Shown here: positions 14,451 to 40,879 of the stretch, in pieces
Numbering within the stretch: position 1 is the first letter of the stretch
How the letters are laid out: each line of letters starts with the position of its first letter
Assembly (NCBI RefSeq): GCF_003633755.1
Contig: NZ_RBIL01000001.1
Coordinates: 791,426-855,425 of the forward strand
DNA from: Solirubrobacter pauli
GTDB lineage: Bacteria > Actinomycetota > Thermoleophilia > Solirubrobacterales > Solirubrobacteraceae
Reading direction: 5' to 3'
Length of the DNA stretch: 64,000 nt
Made by a program: the position numbers and the translations under genes
The notes under the pieces: model-generated
Database searches by the model: none
What the model saw: only the letters and a program-made list of their open reading frames with translations
Told to the model about the DNA's origin: nothing

Positions 14451-14460
14451 GCAGACGAAA

Positions 14461-14487
14461 GGCCCCGCGGAACGTGACCGCGGGGCC
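14461..14487 (+). terminator. Rho-independent-type hairpin after module C
   Basis: A 10-bp perfect stem GGCCCCGCGG / CCGCGGGGCC with a 7-nt loop, 10 nt after the lipoprotein stop. It abuts promoter module D and takes the place of the palindromic operator seen in modules A-C. Confidence 0.6.
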
Positions 14488-14488
14488 T

Positions 14489-14534
14489 CATCACTTCGCG
14501 ACGTTTCACGACAGACCAACCGAACGTAGCGTCG
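14489..14534 (+). promoter_or_regulatory. Promoter module copy D
   Basis: CATCACTTCGCGACGTTTC (14489-14507), exactly 17 bp, then CGTAGCGTCG (14525-14534); leader ATG 6 nt later. It differs from copies A-C in lacking the TTGGCG palindrome, so this unit may share the promoter type but not the repressor or activator site. Confidence 0.68.
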
Positions 14535-14540
14535 GCGGCC

Positions 14541-14573
14541 ATGCGGACAAAGACGAGGGGAGCACGATCATGA
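14541..14573 (+). CDS. Ten-codon leader peptide (module D)
   Basis: Reads MRTKTRGARS and ends in TGA overlapping the ATG of the next gene (ATGA), as in module B. GAGGGGAG inside the leader serves as ribosome site for the main gene. The leader ATG is at the expected transcription start. Confidence 0.5.
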   Translation: MRTKTRGARS

Positions 14574-16507: not shown

Positions 16508-16752
16508 GCAGCCACCAACGCACTCGCCGGCTTCGCGCATTGGCCCTCCTGTCGCCTGATCGAACGCCGGCTTTTCGCCTGACACCAGGGCCCGCCGGGT
16601 CCACGTTCGTGCACGGCCGCGGTGGCGCTCCTGCTCGCGCGGGCAGTGTCCAGCCGTCGCGCCAGGCGACAGATCGCGCAGGGGTTTGTTCGGCGTTCCG
16701 GGCGGCCCGGAACGGCGGAGATTTGTCCGTTCGGCCAGTGGTGAGGTACCCA
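16508..16752. other. Intergenic stretch with a GC hairpin
   Basis: No gene. A perfect 8-bp inverted repeat GTTCCGGG-CGG-CCCGGAAC lies at 16695-16713, between two same-strand genes; it could attenuate transcription or bind a regulator, and it lacks a T tract. No copy of the CATCACTTTG promoter module is present here. Confidence 0.4.
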
Positions 16753-18444: not shown

Positions 18445-18486
18445 CGAACCAGCACACCAACCGATGCGCACTCACGGAGGACGCAG

Positions 18487-20886
18487 ATGAGCAACCGGCG
18501 GCGGTCGCTGCAAATCGCGCTGGCCATGACCGTTGCCTTCGCGGTCGGATTCTGCGGGCAGGCGCCCGCCGCGTGGGGCGCGACGAAGTTGCCGTACCCC
18601 ACGAACGGATGGGTGAACCCCGTTACGCCCGCGGCGTTCGAGGACTGGGGATTCGCCAGCTGTAGCCCTCCCTACAACGGCAACCAGGCGCACCTGGGCG
18701 CCGACTCACAAGGAACCACCGCCGGGCAAACCGTGATTGCCATGGCCAGCGGAACCGTCGTCCGCGTCGTGGTGTCGAACTGGGGCCCGGGCGGGGCAAT
18801 AGGCATCGAGCACGTCACCGCCGACGGGACACGCTTTGTCGCTCTGTACGGGCATATCGACGTCACCATGCAGCCAGGCCAAGCCGTCGCTGCAGGACAA
18901 GCGATCGGGACGCTTCACGACCAGCGCGCCAACAGCCATCTGCATCTCGGTCTACGTCCACTCGGCCCGGGTGAGACGGGCAGCGCGATCACCCTCTGGG
19001 GATCGTCGACGTGCATCAACGGAACGGCACGATCCTACGGATTCGTCAATCCGATTCCATGGCTCGCGACTCATCCTCCAGCAACGCCTCCCGACCGAGA
19101 GCCCGATGCCGACGGGGACGGGACGCCGGATGTGCGAGATGCATGTCCGTCCGAGGTCGGGCCAAGGCTCACCAGCGGGTGTCCAGACGACGACGGCGAC
19201 GGCGTCACGGACCGCGCGGACATCTGCTCCACGATCGCGGGATCGTCGACGCTGTCGGGCTGTCCCGAAGAGCTCATCGGCGGCCAGCCACGGTCTCGAG
19301 TGGACTTCGACGGCGACGGCAGAGCGGACTTTTGCCGGCTCACCGGCGGTCAGAACAACCAGAGCAGCTACGCCCAATGCACCCTCAGCACCGGCAGCGG
19401 CTTCGGCGCCACCATCACCAGCGCCCTGACGGACTGGGGATACGACTCCGGTCGAGCCTGGGTGGACTTCAACGGGGACGGCAAAGCGGACTTTTGCCGG
19501 CTCACCGGCGGTCAGAACAACCAGAGCAGCTACGCCCAATGCACCCTCAGCACCGGCAACGGCTTCGGCGCCACCATCACCAGCGCCCTGACCGACTGGG
19601 GATACGACTCCGGTCGAGCCTGGGTGGACTTCAACGGGGACGGCAAAGCGGACTTTTGCCGGCTCACCGGCGGTCAGAACAACCAGAGCAGCTACGCCCA
19701 ATGCACCCTCAGCACCGGCAACGCCTTCGGCGCCACCATCACCAGCGCCCTCATCGACTGGGGCCTCGACGCCGGACGCGCCTGGACCGACTTTGACGGC
19801 GACGGCAAAGCGGACTTCTGCCGCCTCACCGGGGGCCAGAACAACCAGAGCAGCTACGCCCAATGCACCCTCAGCACCGGGACCTCGTTCGGTCCCACAA
19901 CCACCAGCGCAGTCCTCGACTGGGGGCGCAACCTCGGCCGCGCCTGGGCAGACCTCAACGGCGACGGCAAAGCAGACTTCTGCCGGCTCACCGGCGCCCA
20001 GAACAACCAGAGCAGCTACGCCCAATGCACCCTCAGCACCGGCAACGCCTTCGGCGCCACCATCACCAGCGCCCTCATCGACTGGGGCCTCGACGCCGGA
20101 CGCGCCTGGACCGACTTTGACGGCGACGGCAAAGCGGACTTCTGCCGCCTCACCGGCGCCCAGAACAACCAGAGCAGCTACGCCCAATGCACCCTCAGCA
20201 CCGGCACCGCCTTCGGTCCCACAACCACCAGCGCAGTCCTCGACTGGGGGCGCAACCTCGGCCGCGCCTGGGCAGACCTCAACGGCGACGGCAAAGCAGA
20301 CTTCTGCCGACTCACCGGCGCCCAGAACAACCAGAACAGCTACGCCCAATGCACCCTCAGCACCGGCAGCGCCTTCGGCGCCACCATCACCAGCGCCCTC
20401 ATCGACTGGGGCCTAGACGCCGGACGCGCCTGGCCGGGAACCGGCAACGCGGTCGCGACCACGTGCCCGCAGCCGTCGACCGGCCGACCGCCCACCTGTG
20501 ACCCGCAGTCAGTTTCATGCTCGCCCAGTCAGATCGGCGCGCCGCCAAACTGTCAGCCGCCGGCCGAAGCTTCCTGCGGTGCAGGGATCTCCCCGACTCC
20601 GCCCGACTGCGTGGCTGGCGCTGCCGCACCGCCCGTACCCAGTGGAATGGCAGCGACCAGCAGATCGCGAAATCAGCACGTGACCGTAAGGCTCGCGCAG
20701 GGTTGCGCGAAGCGCTACCTCCGCGTCTCAGGAACGGGAGTCTCGATTCTCGCCATCAAACGCATGCGCAACGCGCGATGCCGGATCACGCTCCGCATAC
20801 AGGCCTCCGCGCGCGGCCTGCGAGCCATCTCGGTGAAGCTGCCGCACCAGACCCGCCGGACCGTCAAGAAGGTTCGCGTCGCTTGA
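18487..20886 (+). CDS. Secreted M23 peptidase with thrombospondin-3 and seven VCBS-like repeats
   Basis: The 799-residue product has ATG 18487 behind ACGGAGGA. Signal peptide 1-31. The M23 domain (about 40-195) has H69 and D73 (AHLGAD), H123 (LYGHID) and H151/H153 (NSHLHLG). Calcium-type thrombospondin-3 motifs (DADGDGTPD, DDDGDGVTD) cover about 206-255. Seven 54-residue repeats beginning DFDGDGKADFCRL, each with a DxDGDG-type calcium loop, span about 272-649 and probably form a beta-propeller. A Cys/Pro linker and a basic C-terminal domain follow. Calcium-stabilised extracellular hydrolase inferred. The DNA repeat array is listed separately. Confidence 0.87.
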   Translation: MSNRRRSLQIALAMTVAFAVGFCGQAPAAWGATKLPYPTNGWVNPVTPAAFEDWGFASCSPPYNGNQAHLGADSQGTTAGQTVIAMASGTVVRVVVSNWGPGGAIGIEHVTADGTRFVALYGHIDVTMQPGQAVAAGQAIGTLHDQRANSHLHLGLRPLGPGETGSAITLWGSSTCINGTARSYGFVNPIPWLATHPPATPPDREPDADGDGTPDVRDACPSEVGPRLTSGCPDDDGDGVTDRADICSTIAGSSTLSGCPEELIGGQPRSRVDFDGDGRADFCRLTGGQNNQSSYAQCTLSTGSGFGATITSALTDWGYDSGRAWVDFNGDGKADFCRLTGGQNNQSSYAQCTLSTGNGFGATITSALTDWGYDSGRAWVDFNGDGKADFCRLTGGQNNQSSYAQCTLSTGNAFGATITSALIDWGLDAGRAWTDFDGDGKADFCRLTGGQNNQSSYAQCTLSTGTSFGPTTTSAVLDWGRNLGRAWADLNGDGKADFCRLTGAQNNQSSYAQCTLSTGNAFGATITSALIDWGLDAGRAWTDFDGDGKADFCRLTGAQNNQSSYAQCTLSTGTAFGPTTTSAVLDWGRNLGRAWADLNGDGKADFCRLTGAQNNQNSYAQCTLSTGSAFGATITSALIDWGLDAGRAWPGTGNAVATTCPQPSTGRPPTCDPQSVSCSPSQIGAPPNCQPPAEASCGAGISPTPPDCVAGAAAPPVPSGMAATSRSRNQHVTVRLAQGCAKRYLRVSGTGVSILAIKRMRNARCRITLRIQASARGLRAISVKLPHQTRRTVKKVRVA
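19300..20433 (+). repeat. Seven tandem 162-bp coding repeats
   Basis: Units begin at 19300, 19462, 19624, 19786, 19948, 20110 and 20272 with no length variation. Units 1-3 are near-identical; units 4-7 alternate in two types (starting with Asp-Phe-Asp and Asp-Leu-Asn), so a 324-bp pair was itself duplicated. High DNA identity implies recent expansion or gene conversion; copy number may vary between strains. Confidence 0.92.
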
Positions 20887-21583
20887 TAAGTGCTCCCGGC
20901 GCGTCGGCGCGCTTCATTGCGGCTTCCCCTGTAGCACCGCTGAAAGAGGCGCTACCTGCCCCGCCGTCGCCTCACGGTGGTCTCGCCCCGCCCACACGAT
21001 GGCACGAGCTTGGCGACCTTATCGGCGAGCGTGACTCTCAAACGAACGGGATCACCGCCGGAGATCGTCGAAGCGCCGGGGCAGACGTGGCGGCCGTCGC
21101 TCGCACCAGCGAAGTGCCCAACGGTGAAGTCGCTCAGTGGACTCTCGATATCGCGGAAACGGTCACCTCCGCTCGCCCCTCGTGTGTCGCGGTGCTCACG
21201 AAAAGGGCGCAGGGATCGGTCCCAAAGGTCGAGCCAGAGTCCACTTCGAGGACGGCCCGCCCGTGGCCTTGACGATACATTCATACACGACAGGTCGTCG
21301 TTGCTGGTTGACGCCAAGCACTTATATGGACGACTAGCGCCAGGCGAGCATGCAGCCGAATCAGCGACGCGGCGCTGGGCAGCAACGAAGGCCGTCCTCG
21401 AGTCAAGCGGCGACCTGCCCGCTGACGCCGGGCCGACGTTTGTGCCGATGAGCGAGTTCGTGCACTCCTGGGTCAAGACCCTCCAGCGCCATGCGGCGGT
21501 CGGCCATGCCGGTGGCCGGCAGACTTTCGCGCCGAGGTGCCATGGGCTGCCCGCGCCGCTCGCCGGTTGACCGACGAATCGTT
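20887..21583. other. Region without a convincing gene
   Basis: Open frames exist on both strands but none has a ribosome site, family resemblance or consistent composition. A minus-strand frame near 20955-21200 ends in a plausible short domain (PVRLRVTLADKVAKLV) but lacks a believable start, so it may be gene debris. GC content drops by eye compared with the flanks. Confidence 0.35.
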
Positions 21584-22186
21584 CTATCTCGCGCCCGCCA
21601 TCGCCGCCGTTACCGCGGTGTGAAACTCGTCGAGCTTGCCGCGGACGGAGTGCCTCCACTCCTCGTCAGCCGCGGAAACATCGTCGGCAAGGAACGCAGC
21701 CGCGGGCGAATCATGGTGCAGCGTCAAGCGTCTACCCGCGCGTTCGATGCGATCGATCTCGTTGAGCGGCCACGCGCAACAGAACGCGCGCGGGTACAAG
21801 TCGACCAACCCGAACCCCGTGATGACCTTGCTTTGCGATTCGCACGCTCCAGGACCACCGAATCCGATGTACAGAGTCGTGTCGCTGAGGAGCAGGTTCG
21901 CAACCCCCGAAGCGACAATTGTGGGCTGCGCCTCCGGGTCCTCGGGTATTTGAGCCACTACCTGGCACGCGTTAGCAACGCCGGCCACCCAACGTCCAAG
22001 TATCACCTCCCCGTCCCGTGCGACCTGCGGGCCGGCAGATACGCTGAACACTATCCCGCGTGCCTCGTCGCGCTCGACGGGATCGTCACACTCGAATACG
22101 CGGCCTGGAGGGAAGACAGTGCTGGCGTTCCACCCGGAAGGCCGGTTCGGTGTCGGCCCGCTGGATTTCCGGCTGAAGAATCCCAC
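21584..22186 (-). CDS. Hypothetical protein with bacterial PH-like domain
   Basis: The product is 200 residues from GTG 22186 with AGGGAG upstream, reading VGFFSRK. The central and C-terminal part has LLLSDTTLYIGFGG, then AWPLNEIDRIERAG and LTLHHDS, the strand-helix pattern of bacterial PH-like domains (Y-x-x-x-x then W-P-L-x-x-I). No transmembrane segment. The family is not certain and no partner genes are adjacent; a scaffold or membrane-associated role is the usual guess for such domains. Confidence 0.62.
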   Translation of the reverse strand: MGFFSRKSSGPTPNRPSGWNASTVFPPGRVFECDDPVERDEARGIVFSVSAGPQVARDGEVILGRWVAGVANACQVVAQIPEDPEAQPTIVASGVANLLLSDTTLYIGFGGPGACESQSKVITGFGLVDLYPRAFCCAWPLNEIDRIERAGRRLTLHHDSPAAAFLADDVSAADEEWRHSVRGKLDEFHTAVTAAMAGAR

Positions 22187-23002
22187 GTTGTCTCCCTGTC
22201 ATCGATCGGTTTGCGGGCCGCCGAAGCCGCTGGCGGCGTCGTCAACGCGCTAACGTGCCACAAGCGCCTTAGCTCTCACTGTGGCATTAACGTCGCTCGT
22301 TTGCGCTGCTGAAGGTGCCGCGTGGAAGCAGAATGTCGGAGTGACAGCCGTTCGGGTTTCTTGCGGGTCGTCTTCATCGTCGGTCATGCCAGGGTCGCCG
22401 AAGCCCGGTGGGTCCCGGCGGTGATCTCGACGCCGCGAAGCTGAGCACACAACGGCCGTCGAGGAGGGCTTCCGCGATGGCATCGCGGGACCGTACCAGC
22501 GCATCACACAAGTGTCGACCGCTGTTTGCCTCAGCGATGGCGATGGGCGACATGGCGGGCTCGCGCTCGAGGTTGGTGTGCTGGAGCTGCTCCTCGACGC
22601 TTTGTCATCGACCGAAGTGGGCCATCCGCCGAAACGAGCGCGATCGCGTTGCGTCACTGGCGGCAGGCGCCCTCGCCACCCCCGGAGCTTGGTACTACGC
22701 GCGCCCAAGTCGTCGTCGCCGCTGGCCCGACGTGCTTGCGAGCGTGAAGGCTCGGTGTTCATACGTCGTGAGCGGTAGGTACCGACGCTTGGCAACCCCC
22801 GAGCTATCTAGAGCCTCGGCTGGATGCGCGCCGCGGGTGAGAAGGGGGTCAGCTCACCGCCCGCGCTGACAAGACAGGCCCCTCGTCGAAAACGGACGAG
22901 ATCGTCGAAAATGACAGCGTTGCGTGACGGAACTTGGTGTCCGCACAAGACAAGGACGGACACTGAGATGGACTTAGCTGATCCGAGACAGCAGTTCGCG
23001 GT
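22187..23002. other. Region without a convincing gene
   Basis: About 815 bases with frames on both strands that read as low-complexity Ser/Arg/Pro sequence. No tRNA, inverted repeats of insertion-sequence type or promoter-module copy were found. Confidence 0.35.
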
Positions 23003-24229
23003 TTACGGCTTCGCCTTCTTGCGCCTCACCGCACGCGGCAACGGCTCGGTGAGGTCGTAGCGCAGGATGCCGGAGGCAACAATTGCCCGGACGTCAGGCT
23101 TGATGAGCGCCAGCAGCGCGGCTGGCGCGTCCGGCGACGCGAGCACCGGTTCAAGCTCGTGTTGTGAGTACCAACTCGCCCCATCCTCGTTCGCCGTGAA
23201 GCCTCCGTCGAGCAGCTCGTTTATCTGAGATCGGAACTTCGAGCTGCCCTCGTCAAGAGCCGCGTCGGCATCGCGCGGGGCCACCGTGACGCCGACCAAC
23301 GGTTGGCGATCCTCCATCCAACACTCCACGATCACGACCGCCTTGTTGTACTCGGCCGGTACGCTCAGCCCGAACTTCACCTCGTACACCGTCGCCTGCA
23401 CGATGCTGGAGGCCTTCAATTGACCAGCTAGCTCGTTCTCGGAGCGCCCTGTGCGATAACGCCTGAGCTCGGTGCGCAGCGTCGCCAGTGTCTCGCCGTG
23501 GACTTGCTCCAACAGCCAGCGCAGCGCCACCCGCCCGTCGCTGTACTTCGCCCATCCACGCACCGCGTCGGCGTCAATAGTCGTCATCCCCAGGTCCCCC
23601 TGTTCGTCAAGCACTTCGAGCAGGCGCTGCCACTGTCCGGCGACTCCGGCGTCCTGCGGCGACAAGCCGCGGAGACGAGGCAGCAGCCTTGCCCATCGGA
23701 TAGAGCCCAGCCATTCCTCTTCCGTCGGCTCAAGCTCACCGCGAGCAGGCACGTCACGCGTAACTGCCACCAGGCCGCCGCGCCCGCCACGTTTACGCAC
23801 CTCGCGCAACGCACGGTGGTAGCGAGCCAGCTGTTCGGGCCCGTAACCGGCGTAGAGCTTATTCTCAACAAGCAGCGTGAACTGGCTCTGTTCCCCGGGC
23901 TCCTCGAAGATCAGGTCGATGCGTCCGAGACGGTTGCCGTCCTCGTCGGACAGACGTCGCTCCCGGTCAACCTCCAAGGCGTCGGGTATCGGCTTCAGTC
24001 GCTCCTGGGCCGCTGCGGTGTAGGCACAGTCGTCGGCCACTTGGTCGAGAACCGCGCGCGCGAAGCCGGTGGCAAAGCGCGCATCGGCGGCGCCGATTGC
24101 GGCGATGACATTCGTCAGCTGCACCTCATCGCCGGGCCGGCGCAATCCCACGACCAAGGCGTGGGCGACCGACCGCTCGACCGACCCGCCGGCTGGCATC
24201 CTGGCGGGTGCGACTTCGGACTCCTCCAT
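23003..24229 (-). CDS. PD-(D/E)XK nuclease superfamily protein
   Basis: The 408-residue product carries a PD-(D/E)XK core at about 100-140: D105 (RIDLIFEE), E122-x-K124 (LLVENKLYAG) and Q133 with Y137 (EQLARYHRAL), the layout of the PF14281-type group. The C-terminal half is alpha/beta with no recognised domain and a Lys/Arg-rich end. Such proteins are frequent in genomic islands, and some act in phage defence or DNA repair, but this one is solitary. ATG 24229 lacks a strong ribosome site, so the start is uncertain by a few residues. Confidence 0.8.
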   Translation of the reverse strand: MEESEVAPARMPAGGSVERSVAHALVVGLRRPGDEVQLTNVIAAIGAADARFATGFARAVLDQVADDCAYTAAAQERLKPIPDALEVDRERRLSDEDGNRLGRIDLIFEEPGEQSQFTLLVENKLYAGYGPEQLARYHRALREVRKRGGRGGLVAVTRDVPARGELEPTEEEWLGSIRWARLLPRLRGLSPQDAGVAGQWQRLLEVLDEQGDLGMTTIDADAVRGWAKYSDGRVALRWLLEQVHGETLATLRTELRRYRTGRSENELAGQLKASSIVQATVYEVKFGLSVPAEYNKAVVIVECWMEDRQPLVGVTVAPRDADAALDEGSSKFRSQINELLDGGFTANEDGASWYSQHELEPVLASPDAPAALLALIKPDVRAIVASGILRYDLTEPLPRAVRRKKAKP

Positions 24230-24563
24230 GCCACCAATTAAAGGCTCGAGACCGGCGGTTAAGTCACTCGGGCACCACCGGCGACTCCCCGTGCTTCACG
24301 GAGCATCAACCCACCGCGCGCTCGGGTCCCGAGGGGCCGCCGGAAGCCGACGCTCCACGAGGGGCGAGCCGGTGACAAGAGCTACTCCGCCGTGCACGGC
24401 TGCGCTCCAGTCGGCTGAGCACCCTGGGCCAGCAAAGAGGGGCGATCGGGCAGCGGTGCACCAGGGCTTTTCGCGGCTCGCGCCCCTACCAAGCTTTCCT
24501 AGGCGCTTTCCTCGAGATCCGCCACGTCGGTCGTTCGCGATGGTACGCCAACATGACCGGCGG
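24230..24563. other. Region without a gene
   Basis: About 330 bases between two minus-strand genes. Nothing recognisable: no ribosome site with a plausible frame, no hairpin terminator and no repeats noticed. Confidence 0.35.
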
Positions 24564-24905
24564 TCAGGCGTTCCCGGTCTGCTTCAGCATGCGATAGGCA
24601 ACATCGCTCCATTGCGGCTTCCACGGTTCGACGACCGGCAGCCCTTCGGTGCGAGCGAGCTCGCGCCCGGACGCGTCTTCAAGGACCATCGTCTTCTGCT
24701 TACCTGCGATCCAGTCACGAATGAACAGCCCGGTCGGCTTCGCGTGTCCGGTCTTCGTGCGTCGCAGCGTGACTTCGTGCAGAAACGTGCCGTCGTCGTC
24801 CTTATGCCAGCGCCGGCCGGTAGTTCCAGAGCCACCAGACTTGTCGATGGCGCGCCGCTGATCGCAGCGCCAGCCGTTGGGATACGGGTTGATCGGGACG
24901 CCCAT
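24564..24905 (-). CDS. Hypothetical protein, 113 aa
   Basis: Starts MGVPINPYPNGW and is hydrophilic with Lys/Arg and Trp residues throughout; contains GLFIRDWIAGK and a C-terminal WSDVAYRMLKQ. No signal peptide or membrane segment. Codon positions look normal for the genome. It lies 21 nt downstream of the 24927 ORF on the same strand, so they are probably a two-gene operon. Family not recognised. Confidence 0.55.
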   Translation of the reverse strand: MGVPINPYPNGWRCDQRRAIDKSGGSGTTGRRWHKDDDGTFLHEVTLRRTKTGHAKPTGLFIRDWIAGKQKTMVLEDASGRELARTEGLPVVEPWKPQWSDVAYRMLKQTGNA

Positions 24906-24926
24906 GACTGTGGAGTGACCTCGGCC

Positions 24927-25187
24927 CTACCCGATCTCGCGCACGGGCGTGATCGTGATCACTTCAGACCAGGTAGGCGCGAAGCTGGCAGCGAGCTTGC
25001 GGAGAGCCTTCGCTCCTGCATCGGCGTCGGCCTGCGTGAGGTGTACCCGCACACCACCCTCCGGCAAGTCGGAGACCGACGCGGACGTATTGGCAATCGC
25101 CGTGAGCTCGAGGACGAGTCGCTGCGCCTGTGCGCCCGGTTCGAGGATTCTGATGTCGACATGCTGTCCGACGGTCAAGCGCGGCAT
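24927..25187 (-). CDS. Hypothetical protein, 86 aa
   Basis: From ATG 25187 the product is 86 residues, predicted alpha/beta with a strand-rich start (VDIRILEPG) and a helix of Ala/Asp (QADADAGAKALRKLAASF). The frame is open to ATG 25298, but the extra part looks non-coding. No ribosome site is clear at either start. Upstream partner of the 24564 gene. Function unknown. Confidence 0.5.
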   Translation of the reverse strand: MPRLTVGQHVDIRILEPGAQAQRLVLELTAIANTSASVSDLPEGGVRVHLTQADADAGAKALRKLAASFAPTWSEVITITPVREIG

Positions 25188-25384
25188 CGAGACATTGTGC
25201 GACGCGCGAAGGACGGACCGCCGAGTGACGGCTTTCGTGCTTCGCTGGATCTGGCATTCGTCTGATTCGTTCTGAGTCAACGCGCCGCGCACCCTCATGC
25301 GGACCCCGGCCGCTGTCGCGCCTCAGCGCGCGATAAGCAGACACGGTTAGTGTCGCGTCCGGCTGGACCGGCACCATCAGCCCC

Positions 25385-26053
25385 ATGTTCGACGGCGATC
25401 CACGATGCGATGTTCTCGGTGGCTCGCCGCAACAGCAGACCGCCTTAGGCACTGCCGCTAAGCGCGCGATGCGCACGCTGGGATTCGGAGGACCCGTCAC
25501 GGCGACCGTTGGCAACCCGGATCACGCGCCCCCGGGCACGGAAGCTGGCGCGGATCGTGGGGGAAGGATCTGGGTCGCGAAGCGCATCGTGCGCGAGGGA
25601 GAACCGCGACTCGGATGGATCGTGAGCGAGGAGATCGGACACGTCTACCTCGCGGATCGATTCGGCTTGCCACACGGTGGAACCTTCATCGAGGTCCTGA
25701 TTCAGGAGTTGTTCGGAGCGTGGGCGCAGTACCGCGAGCACGTGCTGACCGGGCGCATTCCCGAGTCGGCGCTGTCAACCACGCCCGTTATGCGCATTCC
25801 CCCAACGCCTGCCGCCGACTTGCCGCCGCAACTGGGTTACCAGCTCGGCAAACACCTCGCGGCCGCGGCACTTGGGAGCCGTGCGAACGACGCGCACCTG
25901 CGGGCATGGGCGGCCGATCCCAGCGTCGCGGACGAGTTGAAGGAAGTAGTCAAAGGTCTGCGCCGCGAGTTGCCTTGGACGAGATCTCCGCAGCGACTCG
26001 CCGAGGCGCTGCAAGGGTTTTACGTCGCTCTCGGCGGCTCAGTTGAGGCGTAA
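25385..26053 (+). CDS. Zincin-like hypothetical protein with EExxH motif
   Basis: The 222-residue product contains IVSEEIGHVYLADRFG at 79-94, which matches the HExxH helix of zinc peptidases such as M78 except that the first His is Glu (E82-E83-x-x-H86). A downstream helix IQELFGAWAQY (about 106-116) has a Glu where the third ligand often lies. The first His change would weaken or alter zinc binding, so it may be an inactive or altered relative. No signal peptide. ATG 25385 has no strong ribosome site. Neighbours are unknowns in the same island segment. Confidence 0.62.
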   Translation: MFDGDPRCDVLGGSPQQQTALGTAAKRAMRTLGFGGPVTATVGNPDHAPPGTEAGADRGGRIWVAKRIVREGEPRLGWIVSEEIGHVYLADRFGLPHGGTFIEVLIQELFGAWAQYREHVLTGRIPESALSTTPVMRIPPTPAADLPPQLGYQLGKHLAAAALGSRANDAHLRAWAADPSVADELKEVVKGLRRELPWTRSPQRLAEALQGFYVALGGSVEA

Positions 26054-26267
26054 GCGCCTCCCTGTGTAATGACGTGCAAGACCAAGCGTCTCTGAGCTTC
26101 GCGGCCCTTGCGTGGGCCGTCCGGGCTGCTGTGCCATTCAGCGCGGAGTCAGGCAACGTCGCTGCCGCGGCTTCCCCTCGAGCGCCCTTGGCGCCGTCCG
26201 CTCGCGCACGGTCAGTGAAGAAGCCTCTTGCTTCCGCCTTCGGCAGACGGCAGGTGCCCCCGGCTCG

Positions 26268-26519
26268 CTACTGCTCCCGTATCTCGTATGCGTAGCGGCG
26301 AGGCAACTCCGCGACCTCAGCCGGAGCCTCGGCGCGGGTGGCGTAACGACGCATGATCACGCCGCCGGGCTGCCTGAGTATCACGAAGCCTCTTGAAGGC
26401 AAACGCCCTCCAGGGGTCGGCACATGAGCCTGGTGCCGTTTCGCCGAGGCGCGGATCAGCGGGCGGCCGATCTCCATGTCGCCGTCGTCCATGTCCCAAT
26501 ACTTGATCCAGCGTGCCAT
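26268..26519 (-). CDS. Small hypothetical protein near island edge
   Basis: The product is 83 residues from ATG 26519, reading MARWIKYWDMDDGD and ending RRYAYEIREQ. Hydrophilic with mixed charge and normal-looking codon use, unlike the low-complexity frames around it. The start is weakly supported (no ribosome site; an upstream ATG at 26558 is possible). Not recognised; the closest gene to the tRNA fragment, but with no integrase or excisionase features. Confidence 0.4.
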   Translation of the reverse strand: MARWIKYWDMDDGDMEIGRPLIRASAKRHQAHVPTPGGRLPSRGFVILRQPGGVIMRRYATRAEAPAEVAELPRRYAYEIREQ

Positions 26520-26846
26520 CAGCTTGTGTATCGACAGCCTTTCTGACGCGGCGCGCATTGCTCTGACGGATGTTCGATCTGGGGTCTGCGTGAAAGACCA
26601 CTTCCCAACCAAACCGCCGCGGGCCAAGAGGCTTGTTCGACCACGCTCGAAATCAGTGCTTGTGGATAGGGTTATTTTCGATCGACGTCGAACTACGAGC
26701 GAACCTAGGGCTCCCTCCGCGGAAGCGAGTGCTTGAAAACGACTTTGAAAACGGACAGAGCGACTTATCCGTCTGATCCGTCGTTGGCCAGAGACGGTCG
26801 TTGGCTCTAGAGTGCGGTGTCGACAGGGCAACGTTCTCGTAGACGA
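26520..26846. other. Intergenic region left of the tRNA fragment
   Basis: About 330 bases, visibly lower in GC, with no gene I can support. A frame read through this stretch and the tRNA fragment gives protein-like phrases (EEDSNLHP) that are known artefacts of translating tRNA antisense. Confidence 0.4.
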
Positions 26847-26901
26847 GGTTGAGGGCCTGGTCCGGGCTAACCGGGTGGAGGTTCGAGTCCTCTTCGGCGC
26901 A
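26847..26901 (+). other. 3' fragment of tRNA-Leu(GAG), probable attachment site
   Basis: Reads GGTTGAGGGCCTGG (anticodon loop TTGAGGG, anticodon GAG), a variable arm CCGG-GCTAA-CCGG, a T-arm GGAGG-TTCGAGT-CCTCT, the acceptor 3' strand TCGGCGC and discriminator A. The 5' half is missing: GCGCCGA does not occur at the expected place some 34 nt before the anticodon, and the 5' side of the anticodon stem is mismatched. This is the displaced 3' end left by tRNA-targeted integration, or a degraded remnant of it; the intact copy should lie left of the window. Confidence 0.72.
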
Positions 26902-26908
26902 TGTGTAG

Positions 26909-26932
26909 AAAGGCCCGCTCCGGCGGGCCTTT
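26909..26932 (+). terminator. Terminator after the tRNA fragment
   Basis: A 10-bp stem AAAGGCCCGC / GCGGGCCTTT with loop TCCG, 7 nt past the tRNA end, as expected for the original tRNA transcription unit. Its presence supports this side being native chromosome. Confidence 0.75.
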
Positions 26933-27016: not shown

Positions 27017-29278
27017 GTGTTCAAGCAGCCGCCGCAAGATCCTGGGGATTCCGAGCTGAAGGTCCGGGAGCCCGCGCATCACGCCGCGGGTGTCCCGGCG
27101 GTCCTGTCCGCGCTGCGGCACGGGGTGCGAGAGATGGGGCCGGTACGCACGGCGCGGACGCTCGCGCGCTTGAATCAGAGCCACGGCTTCGACTGCATGG
27201 GCTGCGCATGGCCGGATCCGGACAAGCGCCACCATGCCGAGTTCTGCGAGAACGGCGCCAAGGCGGTCGCCGAGGAGGCCACGCGGTTCCGGGCGGACCG
27301 GGCGTTCTTCGCGCAGTGGTCCGTTGAGGAGATCGCGGCGCAGTCGGACTTCTGGATCGGCAAGCGCGGGCGGCTGACGGAGCCGATGTACCTCGCGCCT
27401 GGCGCTACGCACTACGAGCCGATCACGTGGGACGCCGCGTATGGGGTCATCGGCGATGAGCTGGCCGCGCTCGGCTCGCCCGACGAGGCGACGTTCTACA
27501 CATCGGGTCGTACGAGCAACGAGGCGGCCTTCGCCTATCAGGCGTTCGTCCGCGCGTTCGGGACCAACAACCTGCCGGACTGCTCGAACATGTGCCATGA
27601 GTCGTCCGGGGTGGCGCTCAACCGGACGGTCGGGATCGGCAAGGGCAGCGTCACGCTCGAGGACGTCGAGCGGGCGGACCTGCTGCTGGTGATCGGGCAG
27701 AACCCGGGCACCAACCATCCGCGGATGCTCAGCGCGCTGGAGGCGGCGAAGGCGCGCGGGGCGAAGGTCGTGAGCATCAACCCCCTTCGGGAGGCGGGGC
27801 TCTCGCGGTTCGACAACCCGCAGAAGCTCAAGGGCCTCGTGGGGAGAGGGACCCGGCTCGCGGACCTGCACCTGTCGATCCGGATCAACGGCGACATGGC
27901 GCTGTTCCAGGCGGTCAATCGCCGCCTTCTGGAGCGCGACGCGGTCGATCACGCGTTCATCGAGCGGCACTGCGGCGGGTTCGAGGCGCTTCGGACGCAC
28001 CTGCTGTCCGGCACGCCGGTCGACGTGAGTGCGGCCACCGGGCTCGACGACGCGGAGGTCGAGGCGCTCACGGAGCTGATCGCCGGGTCCGAGCGGACGA
28101 TCGCCTGCTGGGCGATGGGGCTCACACAGCACCGCAACTCCGTGGCCACCATCCAGGAGATCGTCAACACGATGCTCCTGCGCGGGATGATCGGCAAGCC
28201 GGGCGCCGGCCTGTGTCCCGTGCGCGGTCACTCGAACGTCCAGGGCGATCGCACCATGGGCATCTGGGAGCGGCCGACCGACGCCTTCCTGGACCGGCTG
28301 CAGGGCGCGCTCGGGTTCGCGCCGCCGCGCGCGCATGGGCTGGACGTGGTCGAGAGCATCAAGGCGATGCGCGACGGGCGCGTGAAGGTGTTCGTCGCGA
28401 TGGGGGGCAACTTCCTGTCGGCGGCGCCGGACACGGGCGCGACGGCGGAGGCGCTGCGCCGGTGCCGGCTGACGGTGCACGTCGCCACCAAGCCCAACCG
28501 CTCGCACGTGACGCACGGCGCGCACGCGCTGCTGCTCCCGACGCTCGGGCGGACGGAGCGCGACGTGCGCGGTGGCCACGAGCAACGTGTGAGCGTCGAG
28601 GACTCGATGAGCGCGGTGCACGGGTCTCGGGGGCGGTTGGCACCGGCCTCCGACCAGCTGCGCAGCGAGGTCGCGATCGTGTGCGAGCTCGCGGAGCGCG
28701 TGCTCGGCGACCGGGTCGCGGTGCCGTGGCGTGCGTGGGCGGACGAGTACGACCTGATCCGCGACGCGATCGCGCGTGCCATCCCGGGCTTCGAGGACTT
28801 CAACACCCGGCTGGACGCGGGCTTCACGCTGCCGAGCCCGCCGCGCGACGAGTTGCGCTTCACCACCGCGTCCGGCCGTGCCGAGCTGACGGTCAACGAG
28901 TTCGAGCCGGTCGAGGTGGCGGAGGGGCGGCTGCTGCTGCAGACCCTGCGCTCCCACGACCAGTACAACACGACGATCTACGGCCTCAACGACCGCTACC
29001 GGGGGATCAAGGCGGGCCGCCGTGTGGTGCTGCTCAACCCCGCGGACATCGACGCGCTCGGCTTGCAGGAGAGCGCGATCGTGGACCTCGTCGGCGACGG
29101 CGGACGACGTGCGGCCCGGTTCCGGGTGGTGCCGTACGACACGCCGCGTGGCTGTGCCGCCGCCTACTACCCCGAGACCAACGCGCTCGTGCCGCTCGAC
29201 AGCGTCGCGGACGGCAGCGGCACGCCGACCTCCAAGTCGGTCGTGATCCGCGTCGAGCCCGCTCAGCACAGCGCCTGA
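27017..29278 (+). CDS. FdhF/YdeP-type molybdopterin oxidoreductase
   Basis: The 753-residue product matches the molybdopterin oxidoreductase alpha-subunit family of the FdhF/YdeP type in length and motif order: FDCMGCAWPDP near 58-68, FYTSGRTSNEAAFAYQ near 160, LLVIGQNPGTNHPRML, AMGLTQHRN, then the C-terminal dinucleotide-binding part with LQTLRSHDQYNT and NDRYRGI. No Tat signal or 4Fe-4S CxxCxxxC cluster is visible, so it is cytoplasmic. Electron partners and substrate are unknown. The start GTG 27017 lies right after CGGAG, so the true start might be slightly different. First native gene right of the tRNA fragment. Confidence 0.88.
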   Translation: MFKQPPQDPGDSELKVREPAHHAAGVPAVLSALRHGVREMGPVRTARTLARLNQSHGFDCMGCAWPDPDKRHHAEFCENGAKAVAEEATRFRADRAFFAQWSVEEIAAQSDFWIGKRGRLTEPMYLAPGATHYEPITWDAAYGVIGDELAALGSPDEATFYTSGRTSNEAAFAYQAFVRAFGTNNLPDCSNMCHESSGVALNRTVGIGKGSVTLEDVERADLLLVIGQNPGTNHPRMLSALEAAKARGAKVVSINPLREAGLSRFDNPQKLKGLVGRGTRLADLHLSIRINGDMALFQAVNRRLLERDAVDHAFIERHCGGFEALRTHLLSGTPVDVSAATGLDDAEVEALTELIAGSERTIACWAMGLTQHRNSVATIQEIVNTMLLRGMIGKPGAGLCPVRGHSNVQGDRTMGIWERPTDAFLDRLQGALGFAPPRAHGLDVVESIKAMRDGRVKVFVAMGGNFLSAAPDTGATAEALRRCRLTVHVATKPNRSHVTHGAHALLLPTLGRTERDVRGGHEQRVSVEDSMSAVHGSRGRLAPASDQLRSEVAIVCELAERVLGDRVAVPWRAWADEYDLIRDAIARAIPGFEDFNTRLDAGFTLPSPPRDELRFTTASGRAELTVNEFEPVEVAEGRLLLQTLRSHDQYNTTIYGLNDRYRGIKAGRRVVLLNPADIDALGLQESAIVDLVGDGGRRAARFRVVPYDTPRGCAAAYYPETNALVPLDSVADGSGTPTSKSVVIRVEPAQHSA

Positions 29279-31506: not shown

Positions 31507-31941
31507 TCACGCGCGCGGCGCGATCAGGTCGCTCATGATGATCTGCGAGCGCGTGCGGATCACCTGGCCGTCCTGCTGGAGCTCCATGATCAGGCGCTCG
31601 AGGTCGCGGTTGTCGCCGGTGCGCACGCGGGCGATGGCGTCGGCGTCGCCGGTGACGCTCCAGGCCTCGACGACCTGGGGGTGGCGGGCGAGCGAGGCGG
31701 CCACCTGCTCGAGCAGGGTCCCGGGCGCGTAGAAGAGCTCGACGAGCGCCTCGGTGCGCCAGCCGAACGCCTCCGGATCGATGACGGCGCTGAACCCGCG
31801 GATCGCGCCGTCCGCGCGCATCCGGTCGATCCGGCGCTTGACCGCAGGAGCCGACAGGGACACGCGGCGCGCGATGTCGTCGTAGCTGCGCCGGCCGTCT
31901 TCGACGAGGAGCGCAAGAATCTGCCGGTTGACGTCATCCAT
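31507..31941 (-). CDS. Lrp/AsnC family transcriptional regulator
   Basis: The 144-residue product has an N-terminal winged helix (VNRQILALLVEDGRRSYDDI; recognition part APAVKRRIDRMRADG) and a C-terminal RAM ligand-binding domain (VVEAWSVTGDADAIARVR), the standard size for the family. It is divergent from the DUF6421-like/SDR operon at 32016, and a long inverted repeat spans its start codon, so it probably controls both itself and that operon. Ligand unknown. Confidence 0.93.
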   Translation of the reverse strand: MDDVNRQILALLVEDGRRSYDDIARRVSLSAPAVKRRIDRMRADGAIRGFSAVIDPEAFGWRTEALVELFYAPGTLLEQVAASLARHPQVVEAWSVTGDADAIARVRTGDNRDLERLIMELQQDGQVIRTRSQIIMSDLIAPRA

Positions 31942-31958
31942 GCGTTGGATTCTTGCGC
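31911..31958. promoter_or_regulatory. 11-bp inverted repeat spanning the Lrp start
   Basis: GCGCAAGAATC (31911-31921) and GATTCTTGCGC (31948-31958) are perfect inverted repeats 26 bp apart, on either side of the Lrp ATG. Such paired half-sites fit binding by an Lrp octamer and autoregulation. The left arm lies inside the coding sequence. Confidence 0.6.
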
Positions 31959-32015
31959 ACAGACGCCGGGAACCAGCATTGAGCGGCAGCGTGTGGCGAC
32001 GTACCGTTTCTGACC

Positions 32016-34088
32016 ATGGCCATCCTGCATCCGAACAAGCCCGCGCGCCTGCTCTTCGACGAAGCTCATAGCCAGGCCTGGACGATCCGGCCTGAGGTCG
32101 CGCAGCGGATGCAGCCGGCTCATCCCGAGGACGTCTCGTACGTGAAGGCCGCGCGCCTGCTCGAGCAGCGCGACTTCACCGTCGCGGCGCACACCGACGG
32201 CCTGCTGACGCAGATCGACGCGGACGTGCTCGTGCTCGCGCACCCGTCCGACCCGCGCTGGGAGGCGACGACGGGCGTCGGCTCGCCCCAGCTCACCGCG
32301 GAAGAGATCGAGGCCATCCGGGCGTTCGTGCAGGCGGGTGGCGGCCTGGTCGTGCTCGGCGAGTGCGATCACGACCGCTACGGCAACAACCTCAATGCGC
32401 TCCTCGAGACGTTCGGCATCCAGATCGAGACGGCGACCGTGCAGGACTACGAGCAGTCCGACGGCACGCCGACCTGGATCCGCCCGCTGCTGACGTCCAA
32501 CGGCCGCGGCTCGACCGCCGACGTGCTCGCGCGCGTGAATGAGATCCGCCTGTACCGCGCCGGCACGCTGGCGACGACCAACGGCGCGAAGGTGATCGCG
32601 CGCGCCTCGACGACCGCCACGAAGCCGCACGCGCCGCTCGCGGTCGTCACCGAGTACGGCGCGGGCCGCGTCGTCGTGCTGTCGGACTCCGACCTGTTCG
32701 GCGACGACACGCTCGGCGAGTACGACCACGCCGACCTGTGGCTCAACCTCGTGTACTGGGTCGCGAACCCGTCGCTGCACCACGCCGAGGACGTCGCGCC
32801 GTCGGCCGCCAAGGCCGACCCGGCGTGGGCCGCGCTCAAGGGCGAGGTCGAGGCGCTGCGCGCGCTCCAGAACGCCGACGGCTCGATCGACGCCGACAAG
32901 CAGGCCGACGCCGACATCGAGGCGATCACGACCGCGATCGACGTCCTGCGCCCGCACTTCCCGCACCAGGCCGCCTACATCGACGCCCTGATCGCCGACC
33001 TGAACGCGTGGGACCTCGGCGTCCCGGACTTCACCGCGAGCCTCGAGGCGTTCCGCCCCGACCTGCAGCGCCGCGACGGCATCGAGCACCTCGTCGTGTT
33101 CCCGATGTACAAGCAGAACGGGCCGAGCGAGAAGGTGTTCGAGGCGCTGATCGTGCGCGTCCCGTGGCCCGAGTGGCTGGCGCAGCTCGAGGCGACCCGC
33201 TTCCAGAACCCGAAGTTCGTGCCGGTGACGTTCGTGGACCGCACCTCCGGCTACGAGTCCAACTCGGCCGTGCTGTTCCCGGAGACGGTCTCCGTCGCCG
33301 GCACGCCGGCCAACCACTTCGGCGCGATCTTCTGCGACCGCGAGGCCGCACGCCTGCGCGCCGTCGCCACCAAGGCCGCGGACGTGCTGAGCCTCAACCT
33401 CGCGCCCGATGCGGCGGCACTGCTGGCGAGCCCCGAGCTCTCCCGCCAGGCGTTCGTGCTCTGGGACCTCATCCACGACCGCGCGCACAGCCGCGGCGAC
33501 CTCCCGTTCGACCCGTTCATGATCCGCCAGCGTCAGCCGTACTGGATGTACGCGCTGGAGGAACTGCGCTGCGACCTGACCGCGTTCGTCGAGGCCGTCA
33601 AGCTCGAGGAGGAGGGCTTCGCGTTCGCCCGCTACGTGCAGCACGCGATCCTGCTCGACCGCCTGTTCCGCTTCCCGATCACGGGCCCGCGCGTGCGCAA
33701 CTACGACGGGCTCGGCGGCCAGCTGCTCTTCGCCTACCTGCACAAGCACGAGCTCGTGCACTGGACCAACAACGAGCTGACGATCGAGTGGGACGGGATC
33801 GCCGAGGGCGTCGCCAACCTGCGCGCCGAGGTCGAGGAGCTCTACCGCAACGGGATCGACTCGACCAAGCCGCAGTACTGGGCGGCCGCGCACGACCTCG
33901 TGTCCACGTACGTCAAGCCGGCGGCCGACAGCGCGTGGCGCAAGGACGTCCGCGAGCTGAGCGACCAGGGCGACCCGCGCCGGTTCATCGACCTCGTGCA
34001 GCCCGACGAGTTCCCGCTCTCGCTGTTCTACATCTCGTTGCAGGCCAAGCTCGACGAGACGGTCGTGGCCGCCGGGGCCGCCGCGTGA
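32016..34088 (+). CDS. Two-domain protein: GATase-like N-terminus and DUF6421-like C-terminus
   Basis: The 690-residue product joins an N-terminal Rossmann-like domain (residues 1 to about 250: RLLFDEAHSQAW, FVQAGGGLVVLGECDHD, VVVLSDSDLFGDD, resembling DUF4350/GATase-like folds) to a C-terminal part (about 300-690) like the family labelled DUF6421, with VLWDLIHDRAHSRGDLPFDPF, a His/Asp-rich helix that may bind metal, and YLHKHELVHWTNN. It is coupled to the SDR gene by GTGA and divergent from an Lrp regulator, a grouping I recall from other actinobacteria. Role unknown; a metabolic enzyme partnered with the SDR is inferred. Confidence 0.75.
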   Translation: MAILHPNKPARLLFDEAHSQAWTIRPEVAQRMQPAHPEDVSYVKAARLLEQRDFTVAAHTDGLLTQIDADVLVLAHPSDPRWEATTGVGSPQLTAEEIEAIRAFVQAGGGLVVLGECDHDRYGNNLNALLETFGIQIETATVQDYEQSDGTPTWIRPLLTSNGRGSTADVLARVNEIRLYRAGTLATTNGAKVIARASTTATKPHAPLAVVTEYGAGRVVVLSDSDLFGDDTLGEYDHADLWLNLVYWVANPSLHHAEDVAPSAAKADPAWAALKGEVEALRALQNADGSIDADKQADADIEAITTAIDVLRPHFPHQAAYIDALIADLNAWDLGVPDFTASLEAFRPDLQRRDGIEHLVVFPMYKQNGPSEKVFEALIVRVPWPEWLAQLEATRFQNPKFVPVTFVDRTSGYESNSAVLFPETVSVAGTPANHFGAIFCDREAARLRAVATKAADVLSLNLAPDAAALLASPELSRQAFVLWDLIHDRAHSRGDLPFDPFMIRQRQPYWMYALEELRCDLTAFVEAVKLEEEGFAFARYVQHAILLDRLFRFPITGPRVRNYDGLGGQLLFAYLHKHELVHWTNNELTIEWDGIAEGVANLRAEVEELYRNGIDSTKPQYWAAAHDLVSTYVKPAADSAWRKDVRELSDQGDPRRFIDLVQPDEFPLSLFYISLQAKLDETVVAAGAAA

Positions 34089-34666
34089 TCGCGGTCACCG
34101 GCGGAGGCGGCGCGCTCGGGCGCGCGGTCGTCGCGCGCCTGGAGGCCGACGGGCACGGCGTGTCCGCGCCGCGCAGCGCCGAGGTGGACCTGCTGGACGC
34201 GGCGCAGACGCAGCGCTGGGCCGATTCGCTCGAGCGCGTCGACGCGCTCGTGCACCTCGTCGGCGGCTGGCGCGGCGGCGTCGACCCCGACGACACCGCC
34301 TGGCTGCAGGCGCAGCTCCTGACCACGGTGCAGAACGCGTCGCGCGCGTTCCTGGAGCCGCTGAAGACGAGCGGCGGGCGCTTCGTCATGGTGTCCTCCA
34401 AGCAGGCGGTCGCGCCGACGTGGGCGAACGCCGCCTACGCGGCCGCGAAGGCCGCCGCCGAGGCGTGGACGTTCGCCTTGTCGGACGAGATCACCGCCAA
34501 CGTGATCGCCGTCAACGCGATCGTCACGCCGGAGATGCGCGAGGCCAAGCCCGACGCGAAGTTCGCGTCCTTCACCGACGTGGCGCAGATCGCCGACGCG
34601 ATCGCGTTCCTGCTCTCCCCCGCGGCCGAGAAGATGAACGGCCAGCGGCTCGCGCTACACGGCTGA
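34085..34666 (+). CDS. Short-chain dehydrogenase/reductase
   Basis: The 193-residue SDR starts at GTG 34085, overlapping the upstream stop (GTGA). Motifs: N-terminal glycine-rich TGGGGALG, a short D-A-L-V-H-L-V-G-G strand (NNAG-type position), catalytic YAAAKAAAEAW with Tyr and Lys four apart and Ser in MVSSKQ. It is shorter than usual (about 250), with a compact N-terminal half. It forms an operon with the DUF6421-like gene. Confidence 0.88.
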   Translation: MIAVTGGGGALGRAVVARLEADGHGVSAPRSAEVDLLDAAQTQRWADSLERVDALVHLVGGWRGGVDPDDTAWLQAQLLTTVQNASRAFLEPLKTSGGRFVMVSSKQAVAPTWANAAYAAAKAAAEAWTFALSDEITANVIAVNAIVTPEMREAKPDAKFASFTDVAQIADAIAFLLSPAAEKMNGQRLALHG

Positions 34667-34819
34667 GTGCCCTGAGTCGGAAGTCCGCGCGTGCATAGCG
34701 GGCCCGATCGTCGTGGCTGGGGGACGCCGGTGATCCAGCGCATACTGGTGGTACGTGCGGGATCGCCGGCGGCCGCCAGGCGCGGCGAGACGCCCGGTAG
34801 GTGCCCGCGGAATTCCGGG

Positions 34820-35260
34820 TCAGGGCACCGATCGCCGCATCACGATCCGGGTCTCGGTCTGCGCCGCGCCGCCCTGCTGGCGGAGCGCGCGGACCGTCCG
34901 GTCGAGGTCGTCGGCGTCCATGCAGGCGACGCTGACCTGGTAGTCCCAGCGGCCCGTGAGGAACAGCACCTCGCGCACCGCGTCCAGCCCGCCCGCCAAC
35001 CGCTCGAAGTGCGCGCTGTCCGTGGACGGCATCAGCCGCACGTCGATCAGCGCCTCGAGCGAGCGGCCGAGGGTCTGCGCGTCGACGGTCGCGCTGAAGC
35101 CGGTGATCACGCCCGCACGCTGCAGGCGGCGCACGCGGTCGGCGGCGCCGTGCGGCGAGAGGCCCACCTCCGCGCCGATCGACGCGAACGGCGCCCTTCC
35201 GTTTCGGAGAAGGATCTTGAGGATCCGGTGATCTGTCTCGTCAAGGGCTACCGATTTCAC
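34820..35260 (-). CDS. Lrp/AsnC regulator, AldR-like
   Basis: The product is 146 residues from GTG 35260 (VKSVALDETDHRIL). Winged helix with FASIGAEVGLSPHGAADRVRRL and a C-terminal RAM domain (VREVLFLTGRWDYQVSVACMD). It is divergent from the alanine dehydrogenase gene with about 70 bp between them, the arrangement of AldR and ald in other actinobacteria, so it probably activates ald in response to alanine. The start has no strong ribosome site. Confidence 0.88.
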   Translation of the reverse strand: MKSVALDETDHRILKILLRNGRAPFASIGAEVGLSPHGAADRVRRLQRAGVITGFSATVDAQTLGRSLEALIDVRLMPSTDSAHFERLAGGLDAVREVLFLTGRWDYQVSVACMDADDLDRTVRALRQQGGAAQTETRIVMRRSVP

Positions 35261-35329
35261 AGTGACGCTCGATCCGCGCTGTGGACCCGTGGATGATCGC
35301 ACGGTTACCCCAGCCTTGGAGAGAACCCA

Positions 35330-36438
<1,109 letters not shown>

Positions 36439-36442
<4 letters not shown>

Positions 36443-36690
36443 TCCTGCTCTTCGTCGGGCCAGTGGCCGTGCGCGCCGAAGTACTCGCGCGCGGCCTCTT
36501 CCCGGTCGCGTTCCTCGTCGCCGGCCACGCCGAGCCGGAACAGCCAGTTGAGCAGCAGCACGGACAGGCCGGAGCCGACGAGCATCGCCCAGCCGTCCCA
36601 GCGGATCTCGTCCTCGATGGCGAACAACAACACGAATCCCCCCACCACGAGGGCGAACGGGATCCCGTAGCGCAGGGTCAAGAGGGGCAT
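36439..36690 (-). CDS. Small two-helix membrane protein
   Basis: The 83-residue product has two hydrophobic helices (about 7-25 and 33-52), then an acidic Glu/Asp/Arg tail ending GHWPDEEQD. It matches a common small actinobacterial membrane protein of unknown role. The stop overlaps the ald stop by 4 nt on the opposite strand. Confidence 0.75.
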
Positions 36691-36822
36691 GCACACAGCA
36701 TCGCCCTCAGGGCCCGCCTGGACCATCGGGTTTTCCCACGGATCAGGGCTCGACCTCGGTCCAGTTCCCGCGCTTGTGCCCGCGCGATCGGTGCGTTTAG
36801 ATTCGGCCTCTCGGGAGGACGT

Positions 36823-37008
36823 ATGTACTACTTGCTCATCGACAGCTACGGTGCCTCGCTGGCCGCGTTCCCATCGCCCACGCTGGCCTTGCAGGCCTAC
36901 CACGCGATGCTGCGCGACGACCAGCGCGCCGCGGACAGCCTCTCCGTCCTCGAGTGCGACAACGAGGGCACGGCGATCAGCAGCCTGGCCGCGCCCGTCA
37001 CGATCTAG
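36823..37008 (+). CDS. Small hypothetical protein, 61 aa
   Basis: Starts MYYLLIDSYGASLAAF behind a strong GGGAGGAC site. Hydrophobic N-terminal strand, then AYHAMLRDDQRAADSLSVLE, suggesting a single small alpha/beta domain. It lies 3 nt before the SDR at 37012 and is probably co-transcribed with it. No family recognised. Confidence 0.7.
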   Translation: MYYLLIDSYGASLAAFPSPTLALQAYHAMLRDDQRAADSLSVLECDNEGTAISSLAAPVTI

Positions 37009-37011
37009 GTC

Positions 37012-37839: not shown

Positions 37840-37891
37840 TTTTCGTACTGACACATTGGACGCGCGCGGTTCTTGATACTGCGCGTTGAGA

Positions 37892-40851: not shown

Positions 40852-40879
40852 GAAGGCGCTATCCCCCGCTTGCCCGCAC

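What the first reader, a model, noticed from the sequence alone, without database searches (positions are those of the whole stretch)
26847..26901. Truncated tRNA-Leu(GAG) marks the right edge of an integrated island
The anticodon arm to discriminator base of tRNA-Leu(GAG) is present, with the native terminator 7 nt later, but no 5' half. This is the expected displaced 3' end after integration in the anticodon loop; everything to the left, including the regulon, would then be on the element. No integrase lies at this end.
Basis: partly seen in the sequence, partly recalled or inferred. Interest (0 to 1): 0.6.

Follow-up and report, generated by a model that had tools for sequence, protein, structure and literature searches.

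The report
Right end of a 161-kb mobile island
The leftover 3' half of a leucine tRNA gene marks the far end of a 161,000-base block of DNA that inserted itself into that tRNA gene in a soil bacterium; this is a well-known way for mobile DNA to enter bacterial chromosomes, seen here clearly and at large size.

Summary
Window 26846-26902 is a 57-bp exact copy of the 3' part of tRNA-Leu(GAG). The only intact copy found lies 161,014 bp to the left, same strand, with lexA on its far side and a tyrosine integrase just inside the interval. Composition differs from both flanks. In the closest congener, lexA and the gene where conserved order resumes are 21 kb apart, against 166 kb here. The interval carries VirB4-like and TrbL-like proteins, a coupling-protein/Replic_Relax fusion, ParA/ParB and many defence genes. 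The 'regulon' motif occurs four times in the genome, all inside the interval. Best explanation: a T4SS-type integrative and conjugative element, or a composite island built on one, integrated by crossover in the anticodon loop. The integrase clade sits beside tRNA-Leu (GAG or CAG) in the best 16 of 24 loci of a genome-wide scan, and all six congeners have a second tRNA fragment at this site. A new member of a known kind; whether the 161 kb moves as one unit is not shown.

The parts
26846..26902 (+). attR: displaced 3' part of tRNA-Leu(GAG), 57 bp identical to the intact gene 161 kb to the left (G000:C1:657257-657313)
   Evidence: crossover placed in the anticodon loop TTGAGGG by comparison with congeners
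26909..26932 (+). terminator-like hairpin AAAGGCCCG..CGGGCCTTT that originally followed the tRNA gene
   Evidence: 26902 to about 26978-26985 matches the sequence directly downstream of the intact tRNA-Leu in G003 and G001 (87-88% over 145-153 bp including the fragment)
1..26845 (.). right-hand 27 kb of the 161,014-bp element (whole element G000:C1:657258-818271; window = 791426-855425)
   Evidence: bounded by the 57-bp repeat; composition differs from both flanks
1296..1315 (-). copy 1 of the 20-bp motif TCATCACTTYGSGACSTTTC ('regulon')
   Evidence: four copies in the whole genome, all on the element
6970..6989 (+). copy 2 of the motif, upstream of an M23 peptidase gene
10738..10757 (+). copy 3 of the motif
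14488..14507 (+). copy 4 of the motif, upstream of the gene at 14633
4700..6591 (+). two adjacent LuxR-type (GerE) regulator genes (4700-5578, 5575-6591), candidate regulators of the motif
   Evidence: the first is below Pfam's cut-off; the link to the motif is inference
7153..20886 (+). run of putative secreted cargo genes: M23 peptidases (7153; 11600 with ricin-type lectin repeats; 18487 with FG-GAP repeats) and unknowns
27017..29278 (+). large molybdopterin-oxidoreductase-like gene (fdhF/ydeP-like, name recalled), first gene right of the element; on contigs other than that of lexA in G003 and G004
31507..48468 (.). conserved chromosome: 16 genes colinear with G003 on the contig of its lexA-tRNA-Leu (DNA match from 31511)

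Best explanation
The fragment is attR of a mobile element that integrated site-specifically into tRNA-Leu(GAG). The element-encoded tyrosine integrase (G000:C1:657418-658653) recombined a copy of the tRNA 3' part on the incoming circle with the chromosomal gene, exchanging strands in the anticodon loop. The element's copy restored a complete tRNA beside lexA and the integrase, and the original 3' part with its terminator was pushed 161,014 bp to the right, where it is now. The element carries the core of a T4SS-type conjugation system and is most likely an ICE, or an ICE-based composite island, with partition genes, a large defence arsenal and, at the window end, a private LuxR/secreted-hydrolase cluster. 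Shown: repeat, intact tRNA, integrase gene, interval absent from the closest congener, gene content. Inferred: integrase activity, exact crossover position, conjugation, transfer as one unit.
For: 57-bp exact repeat in direct orientation, next longest repeat 20 nt. Intact tRNA-Leu(GAG) at C1:657228-657312; only these two places in the genome match. Integrase about 105 bp downstream, Pfam Phage_integrase E 3e-21. In G003, lexA-tRNA-Leu and 16 right-flank genes lie on one contig with about 21 kb between. Composition and coding scores differ between interval and flanks. VirB4/TraG-like, TrbL-like and T4CP+Replic_Relax genes, ParA/ParB. Integrase clade beside tRNA-Leu in 8 of 8 strong matches and in 16 of the 24 loci of a genome-wide scan, namely the best 16. 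A second tRNA fragment downstream of the intact gene in 6 of 6 congeners. The regulon motif is confined to the interval.
Against: A second integrase gene lies at C1:733357-734721, so the interval may be composite. In the six congeners the tRNA-to-fragment distances at this site are small (2.5-18.6 kb), none comparable to 161 kb. The first 4.5 kb right of attR is not ancestral either, and the neighbour gene of G001/G003/G006 has no close counterpart in G000, so this is not a clean empty-versus-full pair. Not all T4SS components and no oriT were identified. The coding-score comparison used a model trained on the same region.
Confidence: 0.9

Rival explanations
1. The 57-bp repeat bounds an accretion: two or more elements (or one element plus later insertions) accumulated between tRNA and fragment, and only part is one mobile unit. 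(A refinement of the best explanation rather than its opposite.)
For: Second integrase at C1:733357-734721; the site is occupied by different small elements in other congeners, as expected of a hotspot; tetranucleotide distance varies along the interval; a second non-ancestral segment lies right of attR.
Against: No third tRNA-Leu copy or remnant and no other direct repeat over 20 nt within 640001-855425, so no internal attachment site is visible.
Confidence: 0.35
2. The fragment is an old remnant or ectopic duplication of the tRNA 3' end, and the region to its left is ordinary chromosome.
For: Decayed remnants do occur at this site (27 bp in G003, 89% identical in G004).
Against: Exact over 57 bp in the right orientation, with an integrase of a tRNA-Leu-associated clade inside the interval; the interval is missing between lexA and the right flank in G003; composition break at both ends.
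Confidence: 0.03
3. Integrated plasmid or prophage rather than an ICE.
For: ParA/ParB are present; 161 kb is plasmid-sized.
Against: Conjugation genes lie 13-23 kb from the integrase; none of the Pfam matches was a capsid, tail or terminase family, but not all genes were scanned and PHROGs was not run.
Confidence: 0.15

Closest known systems
tRNA-gene genomic islands as defined by Islander (PMC4383910; passages and section 4 read)
   Same: Regenerated tDNA, displaced 3' fragment in the same orientation, integrase inside, length 2-200 kb; anticodon-centred crossover sites are one of the classes counted there
   Different: Size near the upper limit of that method; host Solirubrobacter
T4SS-type ICEs of Actinobacteria (PMC3218068; passages and section 9 read)
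   Same: Integrase plus VirB4-like ATPase, coupling protein and relaxase-like domain on one chromosomal element
   Different: That survey sought MOBF (TrwC) relaxases; here the relaxase-like domain is Replic_Relax (PF13814), fused to the coupling protein
AICEs (PMC3218068)
   Same: Actinobacterial, tyrosine integrase, tRNA site
   Different: No FtsK/TraB-type transfer protein or RepSA/RepAM among the matches seen; that paper reports none in Rubrobacteridae

Membership tests
tRNA-integrated genomic island (Islander criteria) | Intact tDNA and same-orientation 3' fragment downstream, 2-200 kb apart | tested here: met
   161,014 bp, direct orientation
tRNA-integrated genomic island (Islander criteria) | Tyrosine integrase within the interval | tested here: met
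   PF00589 at C1:658033-658566 and also at 734104-734571
tRNA-integrated genomic island (Islander criteria) | Fragment does not overlap a conserved coding domain | tested here: inconclusive
   lies between predicted genes ending 817478 and starting 818442, but the overlapping ORFs were not scanned with Pfam
tRNA-integrated genomic island (general) | Interval absent from a close relative | tested here: met
   G003: lexA-tRNA to right-flank gene about 21 kb; the 4.5 kb beyond attR also differs
ICE (T4SS type) | Integrase, VirB4, coupling protein and relaxase genes | tested here: met
   Replic_Relax E 2.9e-7 and TrwB_AAD_bind E 1.1e-9, both above Pfam's cut-off; relaxase activity untested
ICE (T4SS type) | oriT, full mating-pair genes, excision and transfer | not testable with these tools
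   needs reads or experiment; the TrbL-like match is only E 1.5e-4, below Pfam's cut-off
AICE | FtsK/SpoIIIE-type TraB and RepSA/RepAM/Prim-Pol | tested here: inconclusive
   not among matches of the scanned genes, but many genes were not scanned

The most novel reading that the evidence does not exclude
The interval is one 161-kb conjugative element of a Solirubrobacterales lineage distinct from AICEs. Its transfer apparatus uses a coupling protein fused to a Replic_Relax domain, and it is steered by an integrase clade that targets leucine tRNA genes and has moved between the GAG and CAG isoacceptors while keeping the leucine tRNA target.
Probability: 0.4. Interest if true: 0.5.

Novelty: new member of a known kind. 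Interest (0 to 1): 0.35.

Why it matters
It fixes the right edge and the full extent of a large island, so anything noted in window 1-26845 (the LuxR/secreted-hydrolase cluster with its private motif included) should be read as mobile cargo rather than core biology of the organism. It also suggests a simple rule for this bacterial class: an integrase of this clade predicts an island in tRNA-Leu(GAG) or (CAG), and the lexA/tRNA-Leu(GAG) locus is the place to look.

Tried and rejected
tRNA-Pro(GGG) reported by ARAGORN at C1:673011-673092: overlaps the long TrbL-like gene and is not reported by Rfam at the gathering score, so taken as spurious. Third tRNA-Leu copy: no match with up to 6 of 27 mismatches beyond the two known copies in 640001-855425 (two places at 7 mismatches, taken as chance). 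Attachment site for the second integrase: no repeat of 18 nt or more tied to it. Relatives as a clean empty site: G003 is the only congener with right-flank synteny, but it has other DNA in between and a decayed fragment; the other five congeners show no colinear right flank in the 40 kb taken. Does the integrase tree separate GAG from CAG targets? Clustered but not one clade each (2 changes; 5 of 500 and 4 of 500 shuffles as low; 4 of 13 inner branches open). Solved structures for the fused coupling protein: 0 matches. Papers: searches on Solirubrobacter/Thermoleophilia islands and on Replic_Relax fusions listed no paper on this element or fusion by title; only the named passages and sections were read, plus passages of PMC9903846 and PMC5357655.

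Full report
What is there. The window is G000:C1:791426-855425 of a 7.1-Mb genome in four contigs. Window 26847-26901 equals the last 55 bases of tRNA-Leu(GAG), and the exact repeat is 57 bp (26846-26902). No full tRNA lies in the window.

The other end. A search of the whole genome with the fragment and its surroundings gave two places only: the fragment itself and C1:657246-657313, where ARAGORN calls an intact tRNA-Leu(GAG), 657228-657312, same strand. The distance is 161,014 bp. On its left is lexA (656469-657116, minus strand; gene; name by recall of the sequence, relatives in 59 of 61 genomes). On its right, about 105 bp from the tRNA end, is a 411-residue tyrosine integrase.

Chance. 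In 640001-855425 the next longest direct repeat more than 1.5 kb apart is 20 nt; 20 of 20 third-order Markov versions had longest repeats of 18-22 nt.

Comparison with relatives. The lexA protein was found in 59 of 61 genomes; loci were given for 30 of them, own genome included, and tRNA-Leu(GAG) lay beside lexA in 30 of 30. In all six congeners a second, partial copy lies 2.5-18.6 kb downstream of the intact gene: 98% over 53 bp in G001, G002 and G006, 96% over 55 bp in G005, 89% over 53 bp in G004, 93% over 27 bp in G003. Of 11 other regions that hold the intact gene, one (G035) has a second copy; three of the 11 contigs were shorter than the 20 kb asked for. The shared sequence begins at the anticodon loop TTGAGGG in G001, G002, G004 and G006, which places the crossover there. 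In G000 the identity continues three bases further upstream.

Which side is ancestral. The 77-84 bases right of the fragment in G000 (window 26902 to about 26985) match what directly follows the intact tRNA in G003 and G001.

Empty-site test. In G003 (lexA 98% identical) 16 genes from the right flank of G000 (822932 onward; 52-99% identical, 15 of 16 at 78% or more) lie in the same order on the contig that holds lexA-tRNA-Leu, beginning about 21 kb from the tRNA. In G000 the same two points are 166 kb apart. Against a simple picture: G003 has other genes in those 21 kb; G000 has the fdhF-like gene and small genes in 818411-822935 that G003 lacks here; and the gene next to the fragment in G001, G003 and G006 (92% identical) has only about 44-46% relatives in G000. 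The site is a hotspot with turnover on the right of the tRNA. The other five congeners gave no colinear right flank in the 40 kb taken.

Composition. GC is 0.69-0.71 inside against 0.71 and 0.72 in the flanks, third-position GC 0.84-0.88 against 0.91 and 0.96; tetranucleotide distance to the flanks is 109-203 inside against 77 and 41 (the flanks themselves are the reference, so their distances are low by construction). Per-gene coding scores are lower inside (100 genes, median 0.18) than left (15 genes, 0.30) or right (31 genes, 0.37); the model was trained on this same region.

Gene content. 173 genes were predicted in the 215 kb by a script; 58 predicted proteins of the interval were scanned against Pfam, 17 of them also against PADLOC, so statements of absence are limited. 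Near the integrase: YukD/ParA-domain ATPase, subtilase, TrbL-like (below cut-off), VirB4/TraG P-loop ATPase, and a 901-residue protein with coupling-protein and Replic_Relax matches. Then ParA, ParB, UvrD helicase, PD-(D/E)XK nuclease, SNF2 helicase, AAA_5; GmrSD-like and PDC-S11-like proteins and a second integrase; a 2034-residue PDC-S37-like protein, DISARM/Druantia-like helicases with a type IIG restriction enzyme (PADLOC 1469 bits) and SbcC/SbcD-like genes. The last 27 kb, in the window, hold two LuxR-type genes and putative secreted M23 peptidases.

Spread of one cargo gene. The gene at window 14633 (624 residues) has matches in 4 of 61 genomes, own included; the best outside is 34% identical in G024, another genus, and the two congener genomes that match do so only over about 240 residues at 26-28%. 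So it is not a shared gene of the genus at this site.

The regulon. The motif TCATCACTTNNNGACNTTTC, one mismatch allowed, occurs four times in the genome, all at C1:792721-805932, none for the reversed control. It is therefore private to the element. That the LuxR pair reads it is inference.

Integrase clade. In 61 genomes the integrase query gave 15 matched places in 12 genomes. The eight with E below 1e-74 (own included) all lie beside tRNA-Leu: GAG in six, CAG in two; the other seven places (three of them pieces of one G002 gene region) do not. A pattern-based scan of genome contigs with the alignment gave 24 loci: the best 16 (E up to 2e-26) all have tRNA-Leu upstream in the same orientation, GAG in 11 and CAG in five, 33-364 bp from the integrase start; the weaker eight (E 5e-17 or more) have none.

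Conjugation module elsewhere. The fused coupling protein has relatives in 22 of 151 genomes of the order, own included; the VirB4-like protein in 9 of 61, with three copies in G000. In G011, G016, G035 and G036 both lie on one contig within about 14 kb of each other.

Verdict. The fragment is the right attachment site of a 161-kb tRNA-Leu(GAG) island carrying conjugation genes. This is a known kind of thing (Islander: PMC4383910, passages and section 4 read; actinobacterial ICE survey: PMC3218068, passages and section 9 read). Its size, its hotspot and its integrase clade are of moderate interest.

Noticed in passing
G000:C1:679166-681871 (L086:4166-6871): A single 901-residue reading frame joins a T4SS coupling-protein domain and a Replic_Relax domain; relatives in 22 of 151 genomes of the order (own included), four of which match along nearly the whole length.
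   Followed up: partly
window 26986-31510: fdhF-like gene and small genes right of attR are not at this locus in G003; conserved DNA resumes at window 31511.
   Followed up: yes
window 1296-14507: Four copies of a 20-bp motif, absent from the rest of the 7.1-Mb genome, beside two LuxR-type genes and secreted-peptidase genes.
   Followed up: partly
G000:C1:733357-734721 (L088:18357-19721): Second tyrosine integrase inside the island with no detectable attachment-site repeat.
   Followed up: partly
G000:C1:342879-345479 and 2958572-2961145: Two further VirB4-like genes, probably other conjugative elements in the same genome.
   Followed up: no
G000:C1:737137-781496: About 44 kb rich in defence-type genes: PDC-S37-like, DISARM/Druantia-like helicases, type IIG restriction enzyme, SbcCD-like, UvrD-like.
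   Followed up: partly
window 19141-20574: 162-nt tandem repeat inside a gene with FG-GAP and M23 peptidase domains.
   Followed up: no
G000:C1:659634-666195: YukD-domain ATPase and subtilase genes next to the integrase, reminiscent of type VII secretion parts (the comparison is recalled).
   Followed up: no
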